The translations under genes and the position numbers were made by a program. A model generated the notes under the pieces. It saw nothing but the letters and a program-made list of their open reading frames with translations, made no database searches and was not told the origin of the DNA. DNA of 32,926 bases from an uncultured Eubacteriales bacterium (GTDB taxonomy: Bacteria > Bacillota > Clostridia > Oscillospirales > Acutalibacteraceae): the NCBI GenBank assembly GCA_900315815.1, contig ONAS01000014.1, positions 1 through 32,926 of the forward strand, in the 5' to 3' direction. Shown one piece after another: positions 22,845-31,819 of this stretch (position 1 is its first letter; each line of letters opens with the position of its first letter).

Positions 22845-23201
22845 TCATTCGCGCTCGAACACCATGCGGAACGGATCGGAGTCCATGACGAGCTGTTTTC
22901 CGTCAAAGGTAAACGGTACCTCCTGATAATCGTCCTCGGAGATACAGGTACCGGACGCGACGTCAAAATACAGCTCGTGGGTATCGGTCATCAGAGAGAG
23001 GGTCGCCCGGTTATCGGCGCGTACCTCAAGATGGATACCCTCCTTGATCCGCATGATATCATAAGAGCCCTCGCCCGCGGCATCGACCAGCCGATAGGCG
23101 CCTTCCATCGAATCCGCGGAGACAGGCGTTTTTTCTTTTGAGCAGGCGGTCAGCAGGCAGAGTATCATCATCAGAGCCGCAAGCAGTATCCGCTTTTTCA
23201 T
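22845..23201 (-). CDS. Small lipoprotein, paralog A of a six-gene beta-domain family
   Basis: 118 residues: signal peptide with lipobox LTAC (C20) and a mature region of about 90 residues that follows the pattern shared by the next five genes (GAYRL at the start, LEVRADNRATLSL in the middle, PFTFDGKQLVMD and a terminal MVFERE). The pattern suggests an all-beta, lipocalin-like barrel outside the membrane; this fold call is inference. ATG 23201 has GGGAAG upstream; a longer start at 23225 precedes the promoter's expected transcript start. It has its own promoter (23221-23250). Function unknown. Confidence 0.82.
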   Translation of the reverse strand: MKKRILLAALMMILCLLTACSKEKTPVSADSMEGAYRLVDAAGEGSYDIMRIKEGIHLEVRADNRATLSLMTDTHELYFDVASGTCISEDDYQEVPFTFDGKQLVMDSDPFRMVFERE

Positions 23202-23220
23202 TCCATCACTTCCCGCAGAT

Positions 23221-23250
23221 ATCATAGCACAGATGAAACGGGTTCGTCAA
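23221..23250 (-). promoter_or_regulatory. Promoter of lipoprotein A
   Basis: Minus strand: TTGACG (23245-23250), 18-bp spacer ending in TGC, and TATGAT (23221-23226), giving an extended -10. Confidence 0.65.
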
Positions 23251-23253
23251 TTC

Positions 23254-23287
23254 CAAAAAACAAAAGACGGCGGGAAAACCCGCCGTC
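23254..23287 (-). terminator. Terminator after lipoprotein B
   Basis: Perfect 9-bp stem GACGGCGGG/CCCGCCGTC (23266-23274 with 23279-23287), AAAA/TTTT loop, followed on the minus strand by TTTTGTTTTTT. It insulates gene A from gene B. Confidence 0.93.
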
Positions 23288-23301
23288 AGATGTGCAAATT
23301 C

Positions 23302-23646
23302 TTATTTCTCGAATACGAGCTTGCCGGAAGCGTCCTCAATGGTGATCTTGTTGCCGTCAACCTTGTAAGGAACCTCTTGGCCCTGGAAGGAAACCTTGCC
23401 GGTGCTCTCGTTGAACTCGAGCTCAGCAGCGGTAATGCCGCTGTAATTCAGAGAAGCCTTGCCGCCGTCCTGAACCTCAAGGGTCAGGCCGTCTTTCATG
23501 CTCTCATAAACCTCAGCGCTTGAGCCGCTCGCTTCCTTCAGCTTGTAAGTACCGGCAGTCAGTTTGCCGCCGCCGCAAGCTACCAGGAAAGACATCATCA
23601 GTACAGCTACCAGTGCAAGAGCTACGATAGAAAGGGTCTTTTTCAT
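23302..23646 (-). CDS. Small lipoprotein, paralog B of the beta-domain family
   Basis: 114 residues: signal peptide with lipobox LVAC (C24), a Gly spacer, then the shared domain: LTAGTYKLKEASG, GLTLEVQDGGKASLNYSG, KVSFQGQEVPYKVDGNKIT and terminal KLVFEK. It is the most regular copy and the shortest. It is flanked by a strong extended -10 promoter and a strong terminator, so it is a single-gene unit, probably highly expressed. No catalytic residues stand out. Similar lipoproteins are common in Clostridia, but I know of no assigned function. Confidence 0.85.
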   Translation of the reverse strand: MKKTLSIVALALVAVLMMSFLVACGGGKLTAGTYKLKEASGSSAEVYESMKDGLTLEVQDGGKASLNYSGITAAELEFNESTGKVSFQGQEVPYKVDGNKITIEDASGKLVFEK

Positions 23647-23698
23647 TATAACATTCTCCTTAACAATTTTTCCGACAGTCGATCCGTCGGTTATCTGT

Positions 23699-23728
23699 AT
23701 TATATCATACGCTATATTATCTAGTCAA
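23699..23728 (-). promoter_or_regulatory. Strong promoter of lipoprotein B
   Basis: Minus strand: TTGACT (23723-23728), 18-bp spacer ending in TGA, perfect TATAAT (23699-23704). The ~50-nt leader can form a CCGAC/GTCGG hairpin before the ribosome site AAGGAGA. Confidence 0.85.
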
Positions 23729-23841
23729 CTGAAAAATAACAAAAATATTACAAAAATGTTTCCGTTATTTGACTTGTTCTTTGTCAGGATGGCATATTTT
23801 TGCACTTTTACCGCGGTCCGCGGGATCTTTATGCGGGATCG

Positions 23842-24195
23842 CTACTTCTTCTTGAAGACAGCCTTATAGCCGTTGTGCTCTACCGTCAGCTTGCCTCCGT
23901 CGAGAACATAGGGGGTGTAATCGGTGCCTCCGTTAAAGGATATCTTGTTCTCATCCGTGTTCACTGTCACGGGCGTTTCCTGACCCATCATCGAGAGGGT
24001 CCCGGTATGATCGGCGTCGATCTCCAGCGTCACGTCGCCCGCGGAGACCTTGAACATCTCGCTGCCGGAACCGGAAACGCCCTTGAGCACATAGGTGCCC
24101 GTGATGTTATCCCGTGAGCCGGCAGTCAGCGCGATGATCGCGGCGACCAAAGCGAATACCAGTATCGCCCCGAGGAAAATCATAGGTTTTTTCAT
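23842..24195 (-). CDS. Membrane-anchored paralog C of the beta-domain family
   Basis: 117 residues. Instead of a lipobox it has one N-terminal hydrophobic segment (~5-25, no cysteine), so it is a signal anchor or a cleaved secretory signal. The exported part repeats the family pattern: ITGTYVLKGVSGSG, VTLEIDADHTGTLSMMG, KISFNGGTDYTPYVLDGGKL and terminal YKAVFKKK. AAGGAG lies 7 bases upstream of the ATG. It follows gene D by 19 nt and is probably the last gene of an E-D-C transcript. The 113-nt gap downstream holds a CCGCG/CGCGG repeat and promoter B. Confidence 0.82.
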   Translation of the reverse strand: MKKPMIFLGAILVFALVAAIIALTAGSRDNITGTYVLKGVSGSGSEMFKVSAGDVTLEIDADHTGTLSMMGQETPVTVNTDENKISFNGGTDYTPYVLDGGKLTVEHNGYKAVFKKK

Positions 24196-24214
24196 GGTTA
24201 TCTCCTTGCGTCAA

Positions 24215-25030
24215 TTAATCTTTTTTATAGACGAGGGTCAAACCGCTGTAATCCAGCGTCAGAACCCTGCCGTCAAAATGATAGGTGCAGTCCTTGTTCA
24301 GCATGACCGCGGTGTCGGAATTTTTATCCATCGTCAGGCTGCCGATGCTGCTGCCGCCGACAGACAGTGTTCCGGTATAATCCGGGCTGACCTCGAGGCG
24401 GCTGTTGGTGAACATCAGCGTCATCAGTCCCGCGTCGCCGCCCTGGATACTCGTCAGCGAATAACCGCCGGTGATCGGAGGGTCGGTAGGCGCCTGTGTG
24501 GGAGCGGCGGTCGCTTCGGTCGCGGCAGAGATTTCCGTTCCGTTTTGACGCTGACCGGACGGGACGATGACAAAAATGATCACCAGTGCCATCGCCGCCA
24601 GCGAAAGGACTACCGCGAAAATGGAAAAATACAGGCTCAGCGACGCTCTAAGCGCGTGTGCCTTTTGCGCGTCGGGCTTCTTCTCTGACAGATGCAAATC
24701 GTCAAAGCTGTCGGTATCGCCGTACTTTTTCTCGCGCATGATGAATACACGCTCTCCCTCGGGCGATGCTTCCGACCCGGCGATCGCAGGCTCGACGGTC
24801 GCGGGCTCATCGATCGCAGACTTTGGGGCAACGGGCTCAACGGTCACGGATTCAGCGGGTGCCGGATCAGCGGGCATAGGCTCGTCCGCATCTGTATTCG
24901 GTTGTTCGGACCGGACTTCATCCGCGGGCTTTGCCTCGTCTGACAGTGTGATCAGCGGTTTGCCGCAGCCGGCACAGAACTTGGTATCGTCCTCAAAGGA
25001 CAGTCCGCAGTCGGGACAATATTTACTCAT
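24215..25030 (-). CDS. Zinc-ribbon/transmembrane paralog D of the beta-domain family
   Basis: 271 residues. Parts: an N-terminal zinc ribbon (C5, C8, C19, C22), an acidic Pro/Ala-rich linker with PA(E)-type repeats (~30-125), one membrane helix (~133-156), a Thr/Ala/Pro spacer, then the family domain (~186-271) with ITGGYSLTSIQGG, RLEVSPDYTGTLSVGG, CTYHFDGRVLTLDYSG and terminal LVYKKD. The zinc ribbon should be cytoplasmic and the beta domain outside. Zinc ribbons of this kind are common at the N-termini of Clostridial membrane proteins. GAGGAA precedes the ATG. Function unknown; a scaffold or signalling role across the membrane is conceivable. Confidence 0.85.
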   Translation of the reverse strand: MSKYCPDCGLSFEDDTKFCAGCGKPLITLSDEAKPADEVRSEQPNTDADEPMPADPAPAESVTVEPVAPKSAIDEPATVEPAIAGSEASPEGERVFIMREKKYGDTDSFDDLHLSEKKPDAQKAHALRASLSLYFSIFAVVLSLAAMALVIIFVIVPSGQRQNGTEISAATEATAAPTQAPTDPPITGGYSLTSIQGGDAGLMTLMFTNSRLEVSPDYTGTLSVGGSSIGSLTMDKNSDTAVMLNKDCTYHFDGRVLTLDYSGLTLVYKKD

Positions 25031-25076
25031 GCCTATTCCTCATTTTGTGGAACAACGGTCGAATCGGACAGACAGC

Positions 25077-25919
25077 TTATTGTCTGACAAATTCGTCGAT
25101 AACGGTCCCTTCCTCGAGCGTCAGCGTCAGCGTATTGCCGTTGAGGGTATAGGTGCCCTCGCTCATGCCGGTGACAGACACCGTGTGAGTAGAGGTATCA
25201 AAGGTCACCGGAACGCTGCTTCCGTCCGCGGCTGAGATCGTACCGGAGTTATTACTGCCGATGGTCAGCGTCATATCGCCGCCCGAGTACTGCTGGATAT
25301 CCTGGCGGCTGAGCGTGATGCCGTGGTCGTTCTGAGAATTCAGATAATAGGAGCCCTGCAGTGATGCAGCGCTTCCGGTACCGCTGCCGCCGAAGCCGGA
25401 GTCTGAACTCCTTGAGGCGTTATTGCTTACGACGATGATCGTCACCACGATGGCGGCGATAACCAGTACGATCGCGACAGTGATCACGATACCGAGAACC
25501 ATTCCCTTGTTCTTCTTTTCGGGGATGCTCTGCTGTTGGAGCGGCGTCGCATAATTGGGCTGTGCCATATTCAGGGGCCTTGCGTAATTTCGCGGGGTCT
25601 CCGGCTGAGCGGGACGCGGCTGATAGGCGGCCTGTGTCGGCTGGTAGGCAGACTGCGTCGGCTGGTAGGTGGTGTCGGAAGGCGGCTGATAGGCAGGCTG
25701 CGTCGGCCGGTAGGCGGTGTCGGAAGGCGGCTGATAGGCAGGCTGCGCCGGCTGAGATACGGGTTCCTGCTGTGTCGGCCTGTAATCCACATCGTCGGCG
25801 ACGACCGTTACCGGTTCATCGTCCGTCGGATATGTGTTTTGAAACGGCGAGCCGCAGGCAGTGCAGACTCTTGCGGAATCATCGGACGGCTGACCGCAGT
25901 TGGGACAATATTTTGCCAT
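25077..25919 (-). CDS. Zinc-ribbon/transmembrane paralog E of the beta-domain family
   Basis: 280 residues. Zinc ribbon C5/C8/C19/C22 with the same spacing as in D and F; a long Tyr/Gln/Pro-rich linker (~45-130) containing 15-residue repeats PAYQPPSDT(A/T)Y(R/Q)PTQ and the motif PRNYARP; a membrane helix (~140-165); a Ser/Gly spacer; and the family domain (~182-280) with LQGSYYLNSQ, MTLTIGSNNSGTIS, VPVTFDTSTHTVSV and EGTYTLNGNTLTLTLEEG. The C-terminus departs from the usual FxKK ending. ATG 25919 has GAGG 7 bases upstream; earlier in-frame starts lie beyond the promoter's -10. Head of the likely E-D-C operon. Confidence 0.85.
   Translation of the reverse strand: MAKYCPNCGQPSDDSARVCTACGSPFQNTYPTDDEPVTVVADDVDYRPTQQEPVSQPAQPAYQPPSDTAYRPTQPAYQPPSDTTYQPTQSAYQPTQAAYQPRPAQPETPRNYARPLNMAQPNYATPLQQQSIPEKKNKGMVLGIVITVAIVLVIAAIVVTIIVVSNNASRSSDSGFGGSGTGSAASLQGSYYLNSQNDHGITLSRQDIQQYSGGDMTLTIGSNNSGTISAADGSSVPVTFDTSTHTVSVTGMSEGTYTLNGNTLTLTLEEGTVIDEFVRQ
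25671..25748 (-). repeat. 45-bp tandem repeat coding for the linker of paralog E
   Basis: A 45-bp (15-codon) unit starting at 25671 repeats at 25716, the second copy matching for its first ~32 bases; degenerate shorter units extend to about 25610. The encoded segment is a flexible Tyr/Pro/Gln repeat. Confidence 0.8.
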
Positions 25920-25957
25920 ATTAAAACCTCGTTTCATGATATATGATTTCACCTATA

Positions 25958-25986
25958 ATAATACTTTTTCAAGTCGATAATGTCAA
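25958..25986 (-). promoter_or_regulatory. Sigma-A promoter of the E-D-C operon
   Basis: Minus strand: perfect TTGACA (25981-25986), 17-bp spacer, TATTAT (25958-25963), 39 nt before the ATG of paralog E. Confidence 0.85.
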
Positions 25987-25998
25987 CCGTTATTAACG

Positions 25999-26025
25999 AA
26001 AAACCGACGGCATCACTGCCGTCGG
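25999..26025 (-). terminator. Terminator after paralog F
   Basis: Perfect stem CCGACGGCA/TGCCGTCGG (26004-26012 with 26017-26025) with a four-base loop, followed on the minus strand by TTTTT. Confidence 0.93.
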
Positions 26026-26043
26026 CAAAAGAGTCTGTTGAAG

Positions 26044-26640
26044 CTATTGTTTTCGGAAGGTATCGGTATAGCCGTCGGTCGTGATGGACAGCAGGTCGTC
26101 GTTGAGCGTATAGGTGCCGACATTCAGCTTTCCGTCCGAGCCGGTAAAGGACGCGGTCTTCTTTTCCGTATCAAAGGTCAGATCGACGGTACCGCTGCCG
26201 TAGTAGGTGAAAACACCGGTGTTATCGTTTTTGATCACCAGTGAACCGGTCGCCCCGTTGGGGCCGTTTGTCCACGTATAGGTGCCCGCGAGCTTGCTGC
26301 CCGTCGACAGAACGATGATCAGCGCGATCACAAAAACCACCGCCGCCATACCAACGCCCAGAAGGATATACGGGAGCCGCTTTTTCGGCTTTTCCGCCGC
26401 AGGACCTGTCCGGGCGGGTGCGGGCTGCTGTTTTGCCGCCGCCTGGATGGGCTGAGCGTAATTTCGCGGTACGGCGCTTTTGACAGGCTGCGCGTTCGCG
26501 CGGGGAGGGATCACCGTTACCCCGTCATCCTCCGAGGTCGCCTGCGCTTGTGTTCCGTTTTCGAAAACAGATCCGCACGCAGGGCAGAAGACGTCGGCGT
26601 CCTGTGTCAGAAAGCCGCAGCTTTTGCAATTCTTAGACAT
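26044..26640 (-). CDS. Zinc-ribbon/transmembrane paralog F of the beta-domain family
   Basis: 198 residues: zinc ribbon C5/C8/C19/C22, a shorter Ala/Pro/Gln linker (~30-85) with PRNYAQP (compare PRNYARP in E), a membrane helix (~89-112), and the family domain (~116-198) with LAGTYTWTNGPNG, GSLVIKNDNTGVFTYYG, VDLTFDTEKKTASFTG and NVGTYTLNDDLLSI, ending in TFRKQ. AAGGAG precedes the ATG. No promoter is evident in the 51 nt after the metallophosphoesterase gene, so the two are probably co-transcribed and end at the terminator at 25999-26025. Confidence 0.85.
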   Translation of the reverse strand: MSKNCKSCGFLTQDADVFCPACGSVFENGTQAQATSEDDGVTVIPPRANAQPVKSAVPRNYAQPIQAAAKQQPAPARTGPAAEKPKKRLPYILLGVGMAAVVFVIALIIVLSTGSKLAGTYTWTNGPNGATGSLVIKNDNTGVFTYYGSGTVDLTFDTEKKTASFTGSDGKLNVGTYTLNDDLLSITTDGYTDTFRKQ

Positions 26641-26691: not shown

Positions 26692-29076
26692 TCAGTAACG
26701 GTATTCGATGACCTGCCACTTATCGTCGGCGTTCTTCCGGTACGGATAGTATCCGAAGCCGTCGGCAACAACGGGGATATCCGCTGTCTGCTGAGCGCCG
26801 TCGGTAAAGATCACCTTGGCGTTTTTCGGTACTGTCGCCCGATAAACGGGCTTGCCCTCCGCGGAATCGCTGACATAGGTCATCGCGGTCCCCGGCCATT
26901 GTTCCGTGCCGTCCGTCCACGCATAGACATACGCCTTGCCCCAATTCTCGGTGTCGGTAAAATATACCTCGGCTGTTTCGCCGTCGTCATAGAACCAGTT
27001 CTGTTCAAACACATCGTAGGACACGCTGAACGGAAGGGTAGAGCTGATGGGATAATAGACCCTGCCGGACTGGTCGGTCAGCGGGATATCGACGGATTTC
27101 TTTTTTCTGCCGTTGCTGAGCACAAGCGTATCATAGCGGGCGGTATCGACTGTCAGCGCGAAAACGCCGAAGCCCGAGGAATTATTCTCGATGAACGTCA
27201 TCTTCTGTCCCGGGGACGCTTCGATCTCTTCGCCGGTCACGCTGCTGCTCACATACGCGCGGACATTGTTCAGATACAGCTCGTCTGCCCAATAGACCGT
27301 CGTGAGCCTGACATGCTCTCTCAGCGCGCGGAAATCGCTCAGCGCAGACGCCGCGGCGGTCTCATCGGAGGCATTGTACGCGCGTTTGAGTGCGGCGTAC
27401 GCAGGATAGGACGCGTACTGATAATAAGCGGACAGCTCGGCCTTCGCCGTTGTCAGTACATCTGAGGCGCCGGTCGGAGCGGTGCGGCGTTCGACCGCGA
27501 AGGCATCGATCAGACCCGCGAGCTTTCTCTGGACAGCCGTTGCGTCGATGATATTCAGCTCGTCGTAGCCGGAAACCATCGCCGCGCGATAGCCTTTCGG
27601 AGAAAGGGGCGCCAGCTCGGCAATATGCCGCTGGATCGCCGCTGCATCCAGGATATCCAGCACGCCGTTGCAGTCGGCGTCGCCGTATACAAAGGGCATA
27701 TCGGTGGAAGGCTCGATCGGAATATCCGCCTTCTGCGTATCGCCGACGATATAGGAATAAGCGGGATAGAACTTGTTATAGAAGAAGTTCACGCCGCCGA
27801 GGACGGTCGCGCCGTCATAGACGTCAACCAGATAGCCCTGTGTGGTGTCGTCATAGAAGGTGCGGTCGAGGTCGCTTTTGCCCTTTTCGTCATAGATCAG
27901 ACGGGTAGTGCCCGCGACAGAGGGAATATGGAACATTTTGCAGGCGGTACCGCCTTCGTCGGAATAGTTGACGTTATCGGCAAAGTCGATATGGGTATGA
28001 CCGCTGAACCAGACGACGTCCTTATATTCTTCGATCAGCTCCCGGAAGCGTTTGTTGTTCGGGAACTCTGTGTTCATCGAGCCGCCGTAGGCGGGATTAT
28101 CATGATCGTCGCCCGCACCGTAGCCTAAAATGGCCGAGTGCTGAATCAAAAAGATCTTATGACCGTCGGCGCTGTATTGTTTCAGCAGTCCCTCGACCCA
28201 TGCGATCTGTTCGTCGGAGAATTCGTCGTATTCGTTGGGGCTGGAGCCGTTTTCCAGCGCCATGAAGATAAAGTGATCGCCGGTGGTCGGCTCGGTGATC
28301 TCAAAGTACGGCTTGCGGGCTGCCATCGCCTCCGCGGTGCCGTCAAGACCGGTGTTGATGATAAACTCCTCGATCCCGCAGGAAACGTCGCAGCTGCTGT
28401 ATTTGGCAAAGCGCATCTCGTGGTTGCCGATCGCTTCGTAGACGGGCTTGTCAAAGGAGGATGAAGCGAGGATCCGCTGGTATTCGAGCCACTCGAGCGT
28501 CGTGCCGGAGGCGTTGGTCACCTGATCGCCGGCGGTGATGATAAAGTCGGCGGCTCTGTCGTGACAAACCTCAAGCGCCCGCGCGAAGTTTTTCGACGCG
28601 TTGGTATAGTAGACGTTTTTGCCGCCGTCCTGAACGTCGATATGGATATCCGACAGCGCGGCAAAGCGATAGCTCTTCTGTGTTTGTGCATACGGAAAGC
28701 GCTTTGAAACCGGGATCTCATAAACCGCCGCGGCGTTCGCGACCGTGGGCGCTGTGCCGCTTTCGACCGCGATCAGCTTTGTCGCCTGAGCGGGGATCGC
28801 GACGCGCTCGCCAAAGCGATAGCTGCCCCGTTCGCCCGCGTTCAGCGTGACGGACGCGATCCGGAACCAATCACTGAGAGCGGCGGTGTCATCCGCCCAG
28901 TAAAGGTCGAATTCTCCGTCGGCAGACGCGGTGAACGTCACGGTCCCCTGCGCATAGCCTGCGCGGGCGTCCTCAAAGCGATATTCGATTTTTGCGCTGT
29001 TTTCCGCATTTACCATTATCGTCGACCCCGTGAGCATCATGATACATACCAGTAATAATGACAGACATTTTTTCAT
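26692..29076 (-). CDS. Secreted metallophosphoesterase with dockerin and CBM26-like module
   Basis: 794 residues. Signal peptide (~1-24, cleavage after VNA); N-terminal beta region (~28-120); calcineurin-type phosphoesterase domain (~135-400) with SDIHID, AGDQVT, IGNHEM, LIQHSA and SGHTHID, a full metal-ligand set; dockerin-like pair (~465-524), first loop DADCNGVLDILDA intact, second (SGYDELNIIDA) lacking most calcium ligands; a helical linker (~538-590); and a C-terminal module (~703-778) with VYFTDTENWGKAYVYAW, WPGTAM and KVIFTDGAQQT, typical of starch-binding CBM26. The substrate is unknown. The modules suggest binding to starch or to a cohesin scaffold as in Ruminococcus amylosomes (inference). 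No own promoter is seen downstream of the terminator at 29098. Confidence 0.9.
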   Translation of the reverse strand: MKKCLSLLLVCIMMLTGSTIMVNAENSAKIEYRFEDARAGYAQGTVTFTASADGEFDLYWADDTAALSDWFRIASVTLNAGERGSYRFGERVAIPAQATKLIAVESGTAPTVANAAAVYEIPVSKRFPYAQTQKSYRFAALSDIHIDVQDGGKNVYYTNASKNFARALEVCHDRAADFIITAGDQVTNASGTTLEWLEYQRILASSSFDKPVYEAIGNHEMRFAKYSSCDVSCGIEEFIINTGLDGTAEAMAARKPYFEITEPTTGDHFIFMALENGSSPNEYDEFSDEQIAWVEGLLKQYSADGHKIFLIQHSAILGYGAGDDHDNPAYGGSMNTEFPNNKRFRELIEEYKDVVWFSGHTHIDFADNVNYSDEGGTACKMFHIPSVAGTTRLIYDEKGKSDLDRTFYDDTTQGYLVDVYDGATVLGGVNFFYNKFYPAYSYIVGDTQKADIPIEPSTDMPFVYGDADCNGVLDILDAAAIQRHIAELAPLSPKGYRAAMVSGYDELNIIDATAVQRKLAGLIDAFAVERRTAPTGASDVLTTAKAELSAYYQYASYPAYAALKRAYNASDETAAASALSDFRALREHVRLTTVYWADELYLNNVRAYVSSSVTGEEIEASPGQKMTFIENNSSGFGVFALTVDTARYDTLVLSNGRKKKSVDIPLTDQSGRVYYPISSTLPFSVSYDVFEQNWFYDDGETAEVYFTDTENWGKAYVYAWTDGTEQWPGTAMTYVSDSAEGKPVYRATVPKNAKVIFTDGAQQTADIPVVADGFGYYPYRKNADDKWQVIEYRY

Positions 29077-29141: not shown

Positions 29142-29603
29142 CTAATTCGAATACATGATCGCTTCCATCACCTGTTCCTTTAACCTGTCCAGCGGAGATG
29201 ACGCAGGCATCAGCTCCATTTCGGAGGGCTTTTTTTGAGGCAGGTTGGACGCGGAGTGGAAGCTTTTCATTTGTATGACGATGTGCTCGTTCTTGACCAG
29301 TTCAAACAGCTTGTCGATCGTCGGACAGGTCGCGACCGCATGGAGAAGCTGTTCCTTTGAGTGCTTGCGCGATGCTTCGATCGCCGCCTCGCGCACGTTC
29401 TTTTTCAGCGTTTCCAGCGGAAGAATGCCCGGATTCTTCGGCAGAGGCTTGTACTGGATATTAGACGCGGAGCTTTGGCTGCGCATCTGGATCACGATAC
29501 CCTCGCGGTGTACGAGCGCAAACAGCTCATTGATCGACTGACATTCATCGATCGCCTTCAGCAATTCGCCCAGCGGCATCTTCTGACGTCCCTGTGTCTG
29601 CAC
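29142..29603 (-). CDS. Unrecognised protein with two tandem ~65-residue repeats
   Basis: 153 residues, cytoplasmic by absence of signal or membrane segment. Repeat 1 (~13-76) and repeat 2 (~85-149) share the core ELL.A(I/V).xC.(S/T)I(N/D)xLF.LV, then IVIQM.S..SASN(I/L), then a Pro/Lys spacer and LxxLK..V.EA. Offset is 72 residues. Charged helices around a conserved IVIQM strand suggest a small alpha/beta unit used twice. GTG 29603 is the best start: AAAGGAGG lies 7 bases before it; an upstream ATG at 29663 overlaps the -35 box. A strong promoter and a terminator bracket it as a single-gene unit. I do not recognise the family. Confidence 0.8.
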   Translation of the reverse strand: MQTQGRQKMPLGELLKAIDECQSINELFALVHREGIVIQMRSQSSASNIQYKPLPKNPGILPLETLKKNVREAAIEASRKHSKEQLLHAVATCPTIDKLFELVKNEHIVIQMKSFHSASNLPQKKPSEMELMPASSPLDRLKEQVMEAIMYSN

Positions 29604-29634
29604 GGCTCCGCCTCCTTTCTTACGAGTATCTAAT

Positions 29635-29663
29635 ATTATACTAGAGCTTTTCCGATTTTTCAA
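29635..29663 (-). promoter_or_regulatory. Sigma-A promoter of the two-repeat protein gene
   Basis: Minus strand: TTGAAA (29658-29663), 17-bp spacer, perfect TATAAT (29635-29640). Divergent from the promoter at 29691. Confidence 0.85.
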
Positions 29664-29764: not shown

Positions 29765-30931
29765 ATGGCTTATATTGACGATAACAGCGAGCTTACCGCC
29801 GGCAAGGGAAAGGATCCCCTCAAGGAGCTTGACGACGAGCTGGAGGAGCTTTTGGCACAATTGAATCAAGCGGATGACTCCGATCCTGCACCCCCGGAAG
29901 AACCGAGCGCGCAGGATAGCGATCCCGCAAAGGACGCTCTGCCTGTTGAGCCGGAAGCGGAGATGCCGCCACCCGTGATCACACAGACCCGTCCCTCCCC
30001 TGCTCCCCGTCCGCCGAAAAAACGGAGCAAGGCGCCGATCATCATTGTTGCGGTGGTCCTTGCGGGACTTCTTGTCGCGGGCGGATGGTATCTGATCGAC
30101 CGTCTTGTCGCGGGCGGATGGTATCTGATCGACCGTCTTCTTGCGACAAAGGTCAGCGTCGGCAGCGAGAAAAAGCAGGTTGCGACAGAGACCTTCACCG
30201 ACTCCGAGCTGGGCGAGATCACCGTCAAAAAGGTGGAGGGTGCAGACCTGAACACCTATGACACCAACAATCTGGTCAAAAATGAAAACGGCTTCTATCA
30301 GTACGTCGTCGACGGCAAGGTGACCTCAGAGGTCGGCGTCGATCTTGCCGAGTATCAGGGCGACATCGACTTTGCAGCTGTGAAAAAATGCGGCGTCGAC
30401 TTCGTTATTCTGCGTATCGGCGGACGGTATTATTCTCAGGAAGGCAAGCTGTATGAGGACGGCATGTTCGACACCTACTACGAGCAGGCAAAGGCCGCGG
30501 GGCTGAAGGTCGGCGCGTACTTCTTCTCACAGGCGGCGAATACCGATGAGGCAGCCGAGGAAGCGGGCTACGTCGTCACCAAGCTCAACGGCAGGCCGCT
30601 CGACTACCCCGTCGCGTTCGACTGGGAAACCATCGAAGACGACGAGGCGCGTACCGATAATGTCAGCGGCAAGACCATCACCGAGATGGCGGAAAAGTTC
30701 TGTGATACCATCACCGCGAAGGGATACCAGGCGATCGTCTACTCCAGCACCTCGCTGATGCTCCAGAGCTACGACTTTGAGACCATGAAGGACTATGCCT
30801 TCTGGCTTGCCGATTACCGCGAATTCCCGAATATGTACTATGACTTCGCGATATGGCAGTACGCCAAGGACGGAACGGTCGACGGCATCAGCGGCGCGGT
30901 CGATCTGAACATCTGCTTCAAGCCTTATTAG
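29765..30931 (+). CDS. Membrane-anchored GH25 lysozyme/muramidase
   Basis: 388 residues. An acidic, Pro-rich cytoplasmic part (~1-88) ends in PPKKRSK; a membrane helix follows (~91-112), then a perfect two-copy LVAGGWYLIDR (103-113 and 114-124); a ~60-residue stalk; and the GH25 domain (~190-388). GH25 marks are GVDLAEYQGDIDF, DFVILRIGGRYY, KVGAYFFSQA, the catalytic acidic motif PVAFDWE, and FAIWQYAKDG near the end. The enzyme should cleave the MurNAc-GlcNAc bond in peptidoglycan outside the membrane. GGAGAG precedes ATG 29765. The single N-terminal anchor keeps it at the cell surface, which fits remodelling of the cell's own wall rather than attack on others. Confidence 0.93.
   Translation: MAYIDDNSELTAGKGKDPLKELDDELEELLAQLNQADDSDPAPPEEPSAQDSDPAKDALPVEPEAEMPPPVITQTRPSPAPRPPKKRSKAPIIIVAVVLAGLLVAGGWYLIDRLVAGGWYLIDRLLATKVSVGSEKKQVATETFTDSELGEITVKKVEGADLNTYDTNNLVKNENGFYQYVVDGKVTSEVGVDLAEYQGDIDFAAVKKCGVDFVILRIGGRYYSQEGKLYEDGMFDTYYEQAKAAGLKVGAYFFSQAANTDEAAEEAGYVVTKLNGRPLDYPVAFDWETIEDDEARTDNVSGKTITEMAEKFCDTITAKGYQAIVYSSTSLMLQSYDFETMKDYAFWLADYREFPNMYYDFAIWQYAKDGTVDGISGAVDLNICFKPY
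30071..30136 (+). repeat. Perfect 33-bp in-frame tandem duplication
   Basis: Positions 30071-30103 and 30104-30136 are identical, each encoding LVAGGWYLIDR at the outer end of the membrane helix of the GH25 protein. Confidence 0.97.
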
Positions 30932-30954
30932 GGCTTTTGCGTTCCGACGTATGT

Positions 30955-30982
30955 AAACCCCCGATCTTCATCGGGGGTTTTT
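30955..30982 (+). terminator. Terminator after the GH25 gene
   Basis: Stem AAACCCCCGAT/ATCGGGGGTTT (11 bp, CTTC loop) ending in five T. On the opposite strand the T-run is shorter, but it may also serve the convergent 30999-31229 gene. Confidence 0.93.
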
Positions 30983-30998
30983 GTCGCCTGTGGCGCGG

Positions 30999-31229
30999 TC
31001 ACTGAAAGATGTTCTTCGCGCTGTCGGTCAGATTTTCCATCGCGTCCGCCATCTTATTGACCTTCTTCATCAGCGTCTTTTTGTTGGTGTCCAGCATGAT
31101 CTTGCCGATCACGCCGATGACGATGCCGGACGTCAGTCCCGCCAGCATGCACGGGACGACGCCCGATCCCTTTTTCTCCTTGCATTGCTTATCCTGACAC
31201 ATCATATTGTTCTTTTTATCTTTACACAT
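30999..31229 (-). CDS. Small Cys-rich, YtxH-like membrane protein
   Basis: 76 residues. The N-terminal part is very Lys-rich with cysteines at 2, 11, 16 and 27; one Gly-rich membrane helix follows (~27-46, PCMLAGLTSGIVIGVIGKIM); the rest is an amphipathic helix (KKVNKMADAMENLTDSAKNI) like those of YtxH-type proteins. ATG 31229 has GGAGG 7 bases upstream; a longer frame from 31268 has no ribosome site. The cysteine-bearing segment could bind a metal or form disulfides. Function unknown. Confidence 0.75.
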   Translation of the reverse strand: MCKDKKNNMMCQDKQCKEKKGSGVVPCMLAGLTSGIVIGVIGKIMLDTNKKTLMKKVNKMADAMENLTDSAKNIFQ

Positions 31230-31262
31230 ATCGTTCCTCCGTGAAATGATGATCTTTTTTAC

Positions 31263-31291
31263 TTGCATTCTTAGTATCTCCCGATTACAAT
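31263..31291 (+). promoter_or_regulatory. Sigma-A promoter of trmL
   Basis: TTGCAT (31263-31268), 17-bp spacer, TACAAT (31286-31291). The implied leader is very short, with GAGGTGA at 31300-31306 just before the TTG start. Confidence 0.7.
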
Positions 31292-31312
31292 AGATTCATG
31301 AGGTGAAATGAT

Positions 31313-31819
31313 TTGGAAAATAAAAAAATTTTGAATATCGTTTTGTTTGAACCGGAGATCCCGCAGAATACCGGCAATATCGCCCGCACCTGCGCCGCGA
31401 CGGGCGCAAGGCTGCATCTGGTGCGGCCCTTCGGCTTTGAGATCACCGACCGCAATCTCAAGAGAGCGGGGCTGGACTACTGGTATCTTGTCGACATCAC
31501 CTACTATGATTCTATCGATGATTTCTTTGAAAAGACCGCGGGCGGGGAATACTTTTTCTTCTCTACCAAGGCGCGGCATATCCACAGTGACGTCAGCTAT
31601 CCCGACGGCGCGTATATCATCTTCGGAAAGGAAACCCGCGGCATCCCGGAGCATGTCCTGATGCGTTATCCCGACCGCTGTGTGCGGATCCCGATGATCA
31701 GTGATGCGCGGTCGCTGAACCTCGCGAATTCCGTCGCCGTCGGATGCTACGAGGTGCTGAGGCAGTGGGGATATCCCGCACTGCAGACCAAGGGAGAGCT
31801 GCACCGGCACAAGTGGTGA
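31313..31819 (+). CDS. trmL: tRNA (cytidine/uridine-34 2'-O)-methyltransferase TrmL
   Basis: SPOUT-class enzyme that 2'-O-methylates the wobble base of leucine tRNAs. 168 residues. Motifs: NIVLFEPEIPQNTGNIART at the N-terminus, LHLVRPFGFEITDRNLKRAG, the knot with IIFGKETRGIPE, and RIPMISDARSLNLANSVAVG near the C-terminus, all diagnostic of TrmL. The start is TTG 31313, with GAGGTGA 6 bases upstream; no in-frame ATG gives the conserved N-terminus. Confidence 0.96.
   Translation: MENKKILNIVLFEPEIPQNTGNIARTCAATGARLHLVRPFGFEITDRNLKRAGLDYWYLVDITYYDSIDDFFEKTAGGEYFFFSTKARHIHSDVSYPDGAYIIFGKETRGIPEHVLMRYPDRCVRIPMISDARSLNLANSVAVGCYEVLRQWGYPALQTKGELHRHKW

What the first reader, a model, noticed from the sequence alone, without database searches (positions are those of the whole stretch)
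22845..26640. Six adjacent paralogs of one small extracytoplasmic beta-rich domain
Seen: six consecutive minus-strand genes end in the same ~85-residue pattern (GxYxL start; LEV/LxI with a polar GTLS-like segment; a VSF/xFD strand; YxLDGxxLT; often an FxKK-like end). Sequence identity is low but the order of strands is constant. Such local expansion with several separate promoters is unlike housekeeping genes and suggests diversification of a surface-exposed binding module. A lipocalin-like barrel is my inference. I know of no assigned function for this family, and this is the best candidate in the window for an undescribed system.
Basis: partly seen in the sequence, partly recalled or inferred. 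Interest (0 to 1): 0.72.

Follow-up and report, generated by a model that had tools for sequence, protein, structure and literature searches.

The report
Six-gene slim-lipocalin membrane protein cluster
Six neighbouring genes in an unnamed bacterium related to uncultured Ruminococcus encode copies of one small, probably barrel-shaped domain held on the outside of the cell membrane in three different ways; the copies are old and stably inherited, the fold is a known one, and what they bind is unknown.

Summary
Six minus-strand genes (A to F, 22845-26640) end in one homologous domain of 82-94 residues; for 12 of 15 pairs at most 2 of 500 shuffles score as well. Models of two divergent copies, C and F, are confident, with eight strands and no C-terminal helix. 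Their PDB matches are mostly lipocalin-fold proteins, none at E<=0.001. Nearest families: Lipocalin_4 and DUF5640. By my reading A and B are lipoproteins, C has an N-terminal anchor, and D-F are zinc ribbon + linker + TM + barrel. Seven of 161 same-genus genomes have five or more copies. Orthologue groups persist with domain dN/dS below 1 in all usable pairs: an old, stable set, not a rapidly diversifying one. In eight other species read at this locus the domain occurs in one or two proteins, in two of them as the C-terminus of a zinc-ribbon Ser/Thr kinase. A distant genome shows another, apparently independent expansion, including a zinc-ribbon fusion. Best reading: extracytoplasmic recognition or sensor modules, D-F spanning the membrane. 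Ligand and partner are unknown.

The parts
22845..23201 (-). gene A: lipoprotein (L-T-A-C lipobox, my reading) with the barrel domain at 22848-23108; start re-assigned from 23225
   Evidence: ORF; start from promoter overlap and orthologue starts; domain profile hit
23302..23646 (-). gene B: lipoprotein (L-V-A-C lipobox, my reading), domain at 23305-23559
   Evidence: ORF; domain
23842..24195 (-). gene C: N-terminal hydrophobic anchor without lipobox Cys (my reading), domain at 23845-24105; structure predicted
   Evidence: AlphaFold2 pLDDT 92, pTM 0.80
24215..25030 (-). gene D: zinc ribbon (CxxC..CxxC), long linker, one TM (my reading), domain at 24218-24475
   Evidence: zinc-ribbon models below their cut-off, best E 5.4e-4
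25077..25919 (-). gene E: zinc ribbon, Pro/Tyr-rich linker with NYARPL and NYATPL, one TM (my reading), domain at 25080-25361; start re-assigned from 25952
   Evidence: Zn_ribbon_3, Zn_Ribbon_1 and Lipocalin_4 above Pfam cut-off; linker motif; start
26044..26640 (-). gene F: zinc ribbon, linker with NYAQPI, one TM (my reading), domain at 26047-26292; structure predicted
   Evidence: zinc-ribbon models below their cut-off, best E 0.0027; AlphaFold2 pLDDT 96, pTM 0.83
25958..25986 (-). promoter-like site before E-D-C (TTGACA-17-TATTAT)
   Evidence: consensus scan only
23699..23728 (-). promoter-like site before B (TTGACT-18-TATAAT)
   Evidence: consensus scan only
23221..23250 (-). promoter-like site before A (TTGACG-18-TATGAT)
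   Evidence: consensus scan only
26003..26026 (-). terminator-like stem after F
   Evidence: consensus scan only
23266..23287 (-). terminator-like stem after B
   Evidence: consensus scan only

Best explanation
The six genes are a vertically inherited cluster of membrane-tethered slim-lipocalin-like modules. It probably arose by tandem duplication from a lipoprotein gene kept at this locus in related species. Shown by sequence and prediction: homology, an eight-stranded lipocalin-type fold for two copies, conserved orthologue groups, and presence of the same domain in zinc-ribbon membrane proteins and kinases. Inferred from sequence: all six barrels face outward, on two lipoproteins, one signal-anchored protein and three zinc-ribbon/TM proteins. 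Inferred function: each barrel recognises an envelope ligand or protein partner, the role that extracytoplasmic sensor domains play in receptor kinases. D, E and F pass or couple that recognition through the TM helix to their cytoplasmic zinc ribbon and linker, while A-C act as outer-face partners or buffers. My confidence is about 0.95 for the paralogous family, 0.9 for the lipocalin-type fold, and 0.35 for a recognition/sensing role.
For: Paralogy. Fold. Family. Stable orthologue groups and purifying selection on the domain. Domain at the same locus in the eight other same-genus species that I read there: one lipoprotein in G004, G073, G105 and G214; two proteins in G060 and G186; the C-terminus of a zinc-ribbon Ser/Thr kinase in G017 and G166 (Pkinase E 1.3e-31 and 4.4e-31). 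Cytoplasmic linker motif [NHRK]YAxP[LIVM] in 6 of 20 barrel-bearing and 0 of 47 other zinc-ribbon+TM ORFs of the fetched loci, including both kinase fusions; a looser form gives 7 of 20 and 1 of 47. Zinc-ribbon kinases at E<=1e-60 in 54 of 161 genus genomes, including 7 of 7 cluster genomes and both fusion genomes. In another family of the class (G438), four lipoproteins in one stretch plus a zinc-ribbon/TM protein ending in this domain.
Against: No ligand, partner or expression data exist. The inside of the barrel could not be inspected because no coordinates were available, and the structure jobs used alignments that already assume homology of the copies. In the tree the kinase ectodomains group with the single-copy lipoproteins and not with D-F, so D-F are not simply kinases that lost their kinase. 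The linker motif was chosen after looking, is in only 6 of 20, and the rows are related. The kinase co-occurrence (p 3.6e-4) is not corrected for relatedness; among the six non-fused single- or two-copy species only G073 is in the list of genomes with such a kinase. Zinc-ribbon/TM proteins are common in these genomes with many unrelated C-termini.
Confidence: 0.45

Rival explanations
1. The barrels carry or bind a hydrophobic ligand in the true lipocalin manner, for example membrane lipid repair or scavenging, and the zinc-ribbon parts are only anchors.
For: Structure matches include Blc, monomine and fatty-acid-binding proteins.
Against: At 82-94 residues the barrel is smaller than lipocalins of about 160-180 residues (size from a passage of PMC3367933), so a pocket may be absent. 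Fusions to kinases and zinc ribbons are not needed for carriage.
Confidence: 0.2
2. They are inhibitors of hydrolases (protease or lysozyme), like small barrel lipoprotein inhibitors, protecting the cell envelope.
For: F matches potempin E 8ehc (TM 0.62/0.56) and C matches the Erwinia protease inhibitor 1smp_I (TM 0.49/0.44). Genes for a GH25 glycosidase and a polysaccharide deacetylase lie nearby.
Against: I saw no protease gene beside each copy in the ORFs read. The same neighbours occur in species with only one copy. Kinase and zinc-ribbon fusions do not fit an inhibitor. I recognise no inhibitor family in the Pfam or NCBIfam hit lists.
Confidence: 0.15
3. A largely neutral tandem expansion of an envelope lipoprotein, with little specific function per copy.
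For: Only 7 of 161 genus genomes have five or more copies. E is absent from the cluster in G175 and G198 and F in G163, and a second B-like copy is present in G023 and G163. Constraint is weaker than in CysS.
Against: Five groups persist as distinct orthologues with many invariant residues within a group (30 of 85 ungapped columns in A, 32 of 87 in C).
Confidence: 0.15
4. One reading: a surface-exposed binding module under diversification.
For: Low identity among copies and three anchoring modes. Short N-terminal parts of A and C have some pairs with dN/dS above 1.
Against: No computable domain pair with dN/dS above 0.67 (91 of 100 pairs) and orthologue groups kept across species.
Confidence: 0.05

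Closest known systems
Lipocalin_4 (PF13648) and DUF5640 (PF18692), Pfam
   Same: Similar domain length (models of 89 and 85 positions); E passes the Lipocalin_4 cut-off; 17 of 33 cluster domains match Lipocalin_4 and 5 of 33 match DUF5640 at E<=0.1.
   Different: Of the six window copies only E passes a cut-off; the cluster domains look like outliers of these families and three of the six sit on zinc-ribbon/TM proteins.
Slim lipocalin YxeF of Bacillus subtilis (PF11631; PMC3367933)
   Same: Gram-positive lipoprotein with a lipocalin-type barrel and no C-terminal helix (abstract and passages seen).
   Different: PF11631 is not in the hit lists; the domain here is shorter and also carried by zinc-ribbon membrane proteins and kinases.
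SP_0198 lipoprotein of Streptococcus pneumoniae (3ge2, 5cyb)
   Same: Best matches of F by TM-score among the 50 rows shown (0.74-0.75 by query, rmsd 2.5); weak profile match E 0.047 and 0.21.
   Different: Not among the 50 rows shown for C; B scores 17.9 and A 14.6 of the 100 bits of the NCBIfam SP_0198 cut-off, mainly over the N-terminal signal region; that lipoprotein has no zinc ribbon (recalled).
TcaA of Staphylococcus aureus
   Same: Single-span protein with an intracellular zinc finger and most of the protein outside, as predicted in one passage of PMC10328498.
   Different: No TcaA family in the hit lists of D-F; different ectodomain.
PASTA-type receptor Ser/Thr kinases (PknB, PrkC, StkP)
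   Same: In the two fusion relatives: kinase, then TM, then a C-terminal domain in the position of a sensor ectodomain.
   Different: The C-terminal domain is the barrel, not PASTA; the window proteins have no kinase domain.

Membership tests
Lipocalin_4 (PF13648) | Score above the curated cut-off 22.4 bits | tested here: inconclusive
   E passes (23.6 bits); A, B, C, D and F do not list it at E<=1. As separated domains 17 of 33 cluster members match at E<=0.1.
DUF5640 (PF18692) | Score above the curated cut-off 28.5 bits | tested here: not met
   Not listed for any of the six at E<=1; 5 of 33 cluster domains match at E<=0.1, best 5.4e-4.
Lipocalin/calycin fold | Eight-stranded barrel | tested here: met
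   Eight strands predicted for C and F only. That they close into a barrel is inferred from the matches: mostly lipocalins and fatty-acid-binding proteins, but carboxylase chains too; best E 0.0049 (C) and 0.0065 (F, a carboxylase), none <=0.001.
Lipocalin (classical) | G-x-W motif in the first strand (recalled) and C-terminal helix | tested here: not met
   G-x-Y instead (invariant G3 and Y5 in 33 domains); no C-terminal helix in the models.
Slim lipocalin PF11631 (YxeF) | Match to PF11631 | tested here: not met
   Not listed.
SP_0198 lipoprotein (NF040528) | Score above 100 bits | tested here: not met
   17.9 bits for B, 14.6 for A, not listed for C-F.
Lipocalin (function) | Ligand bound inside the barrel | not testable with these tools
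   No coordinates or binding data available.
PASTA receptor kinase | Kinase domain in the same chain | tested here: not met
   No kinase-domain family listed for A-F in Pfam; kinase found in relatives L049 and L076.
Anti-phage defence (PADLOC) | Match of A-F to a defence model | tested here: not met
   5 of 6 have no hit at E<=0.01; E has a weak partial match, E 2.4e-4, to positions 296-414 of 452 of a PD-T4-6 model, probably behind its kinase part.

The most novel reading that the evidence does not exclude
The cluster is the receptor side of a kinase signalling network. Six barrel ectodomains of different specificity sit in the membrane; D-F are kinase-less receptors whose cytoplasmic linkers (YAxP motif in E and F) and zinc ribbons dock to, or are phosphorylated by, the expanded zinc-ribbon Ser/Thr kinases of the same genome. 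In two relatives the barrel, linker and kinase are one protein at the same locus.
Probability: 0.15. Interest if true: 0.65.

Novelty: new variant of a known kind. Interest (0 to 1): 0.38.

Why it matters
It gives a concrete handle on DUF5640/Lipocalin_4 domains: a search of the held library for DUF5640 found no paper, yet DUF5640 matches at E<=0.001 in 40 of 59 related genomes, with a match over the cut-off in 35 of 59. The shared locus, where the same barrel is a lipoprotein, a zinc-ribbon membrane protein or the end of a kinase in different species, links this orphan domain to receptor kinases and makes a sensing role testable.

Tried and rejected
Rejected: mobile or phage origin (the cluster sits between genes that I read as core genes, conserved in several species; no phage-protein library was searched). 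Anti-phage system. Rapid diversification of the domain.

Led nowhere: Pfam on C (no hit); PDB sequence search (17 hits at E<=10, best 0.029); paper searches for zinc ribbon with lipocalin-like domain, for lipocalin-like proteins in Ruminococcus and for potempin, of which I saw listings only; two searches for TcaA, of which one paper was opened for passages; no paper with all four SP_0198 terms. Weak domain hits in proteins that I read as amylases (L077-L079; G109, G021, G181) are probably chance; they are nevertheless inside the count of 26 of 161 genomes. The PdaA rate failed and was redone. The G438 lipoprotein that I scanned had no Pfam hit.
Full report
WHAT IS THERE. Six consecutive minus-strand genes occupy 22845-26640. 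I name them A to F from low to high coordinate; transcription runs F to A. A and B have lipoprotein signal peptides (LTAC, LVAC), C has an N-terminal hydrophobic anchor without the Cys, and D, E and F have an N-terminal CxxC..CxxC zinc ribbon, a polar or Pro-rich linker and one TM helix, preceded by basic residues in E and F. These features are read from the sequence; Pfam confirms the zinc ribbon of E above cut-off and finds those of D and F below it. All six end in a domain of 82-94 residues. Pairwise alignment scores beat nearly all shuffles for 12 of 15 pairs; the three weak pairs (A-E, A-F, B-F) are joined through the others. A profile of the six finds only these six in the own genome at E<=0.01. 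Promoter-like sites precede E, B and A, and terminator-like stems follow F and B, but shuffles give 2.7 promoter-like and 4.0 terminator-like sites by chance, against 6 and 8 found. The sequence moves the likely start of A to 23201 and of E to 25919.

FOLD AND FAMILY. AlphaFold2 with 33 and 15 aligned cluster sequences gives confident models for C (pLDDT 92, pTM 0.80) and F (pLDDT 96, pTM 0.83), each with eight strands and no C-terminal helix. The alignments assume that the copies are homologous, and the other four copies were not modelled. [quoted passage not shown] for F SP_0198 (5cyb TM 0.74/0.69, 3ge2 0.75/0.70), which is not in the 50 rows shown for C. No match reaches E 0.001, and carboxylase chains appear in both lists, at rank 1 for F. 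Pfam Lipocalin_4 is the commonest family hit (17 of 33 domains at E<=0.1), then DUF5640 (5 of 33); only E passes a cut-off for either in the window. The absence of the C-terminal helix resembles the "slim lipocalins" proposed for B. subtilis YxeF (PMC3367933; abstract and passages seen), but PF11631 itself is not in the hit lists.

HISTORY. In a search of 161 same-genus genomes, 26 have a domain match at E<=0.001, three of them (G109, G021, G181) only in amylase-like proteins that are probably chance, and 7 have five or more (window genome, G023, G081, G086, G163, G175, G198). All of A-F are present in the window, G081 and G086. E is missing from the cluster in G175 and G198, and F in G163; G023 ends at a contig edge beyond D; G023 and G163 have an extra B-like copy. 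In a tree of 49 domains, A, C, D, E and F each need one change across species and B two; all groups together need the minimum. The tree has few columns. Median dN/dS of the domain is 0.18 (A), 0.26 (B), 0.26 (C), 0.42 (D), 0.33 (E) and 0.35 (F), against 0.17 for PdaA and 0.07 for CysS; 91 of 100 domain pairs were computable, with a maximum of 0.67. The short N-terminal parts reach 1.35 (A) and 1.41 (C) at most. With dS often above 1 these values are rough. The cluster is thus old and constrained, which counts against a diversifying surface antigen.

THE SAME LOCUS ELSEWHERE. Eight other species of the genus that I read at this locus carry the domain there: one lipoprotein in G004, G073, G105 and G214; two proteins in G060 (lipoprotein and zinc-ribbon protein) and G186; and in G017 and G166 a zinc-ribbon Ser/Thr kinase of 615 and 594 residues whose C-terminal domain, behind a TM, is this barrel (Pkinase E 1.3e-31 and 4.4e-31). 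I chose these because the profile hit there; the other genus genomes were not inspected at this locus. In the tree these ten copies join the extra B-like copies firmly (98/97) and B itself less firmly, so a lipoprotein like B is the likely ancestor of the locus (rooting not tested). In a sample of the class, 5 of 390 other genomes have a match at E<=1e-4, all in other genera. One of them, G438, has four lipoproteins in one stretch plus a zinc-ribbon/TM protein, a lipoprotein with DUF6591, and a cyclophilin protein that carry the domain (zinc ribbon below Pfam cut-off). The combination of barrel with zinc ribbon and TM therefore recurs; that the expansion is independent was not tested by a tree.

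LINK TO KINASES. The zinc-ribbon kinase family is present (E<=1e-60) in 54 of 161 genus genomes, among them all 7 cluster genomes and both fusion genomes, but of the six single- or two-copy species without fusion only G073. The chance of 7 of 7 is 3.6e-4 without correction for relatedness, and the cluster genomes are probably one clade, so this is weak. The own genome has three such kinases; the one read at C115 carries a PASTA-like segment behind its TM (my reading; the NCBIfam PknB_PASTA model matches below cut-off). The linker motif [NHRK]YAxP[LIVM] occurs in 6 of 20 barrel-bearing and 0 of 47 other zinc-ribbon+TM ORFs in fetched loci, among them E and F of the window and both kinase fusions, which hold seven Y[AG]xP[LIVM] matches each; the looser pattern gives 7 of 20 and 1 of 47. 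The motif was chosen after seeing it and rows are related.

MECHANISM. The best-supported reading is a set of outward-facing recognition modules tethered to the membrane, three of which span it to a cytoplasmic zinc ribbon. TcaA is a precedent for that topology (PMC10328498, one passage seen). In receptor kinases the equivalent position binds envelope ligands: PrkC and PknB (PMC5786024 and PMC6428115; titles and abstract starts in the listing). Ligand binding, signalling and kinase coupling are inferred, not shown.

VERDICT. It is a new arrangement of known domain families with unknown function. The names CysS, PdaA, LuxS and TrmL for neighbours are my own readings; of the window's neighbours Pfam was run only on the deacetylase, phosphoesterase, repeat protein and GH25.

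Noticed in passing
G000 C115, C83, C112; G084 C28, G098 C13, G193 C13, G100 C8: A large family of zinc-ribbon Ser/Thr kinases with varied C-terminal parts, in tandem runs in several same-genus genomes.
   Followed up: partly
window 26692-29076 (-): Secreted metallophosphoesterase with a C-terminal CBM26 starch-binding module; a dockerin-like stretch in the middle is my reading and not a Pfam hit. By my reading a relative lies beside the cluster in G086, G163, G175 and G198 but not in G081.
   Followed up: partly
window 29142-29663 (-): Small protein with repeats of the type CPTIDKLFELVKNEHIVIQMKSFNSASNLP, seen at this locus in many of the relatives read, with varying repeat number; no Pfam or NCBIfam match.
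   Followed up: partly
window 30931-31313: A gene that I read as luxS lies between the GH25 and TrmL-like genes in G081 and other relatives, but not at this place in the window: no ORF of 150 aa or more there.
   Followed up: no
L151-L154 (G438): Another, apparently independent expansion of the same barrel in another family of the class: four lipoproteins, an 866-aa zinc-ribbon protein, DUF6591 and cyclophilin proteins.
   Followed up: partly
L055 2956-3866 (G000 C51): Pair of lipoproteins of the DUF5640/Lipocalin_4 type elsewhere in the own genome.
   Followed up: no
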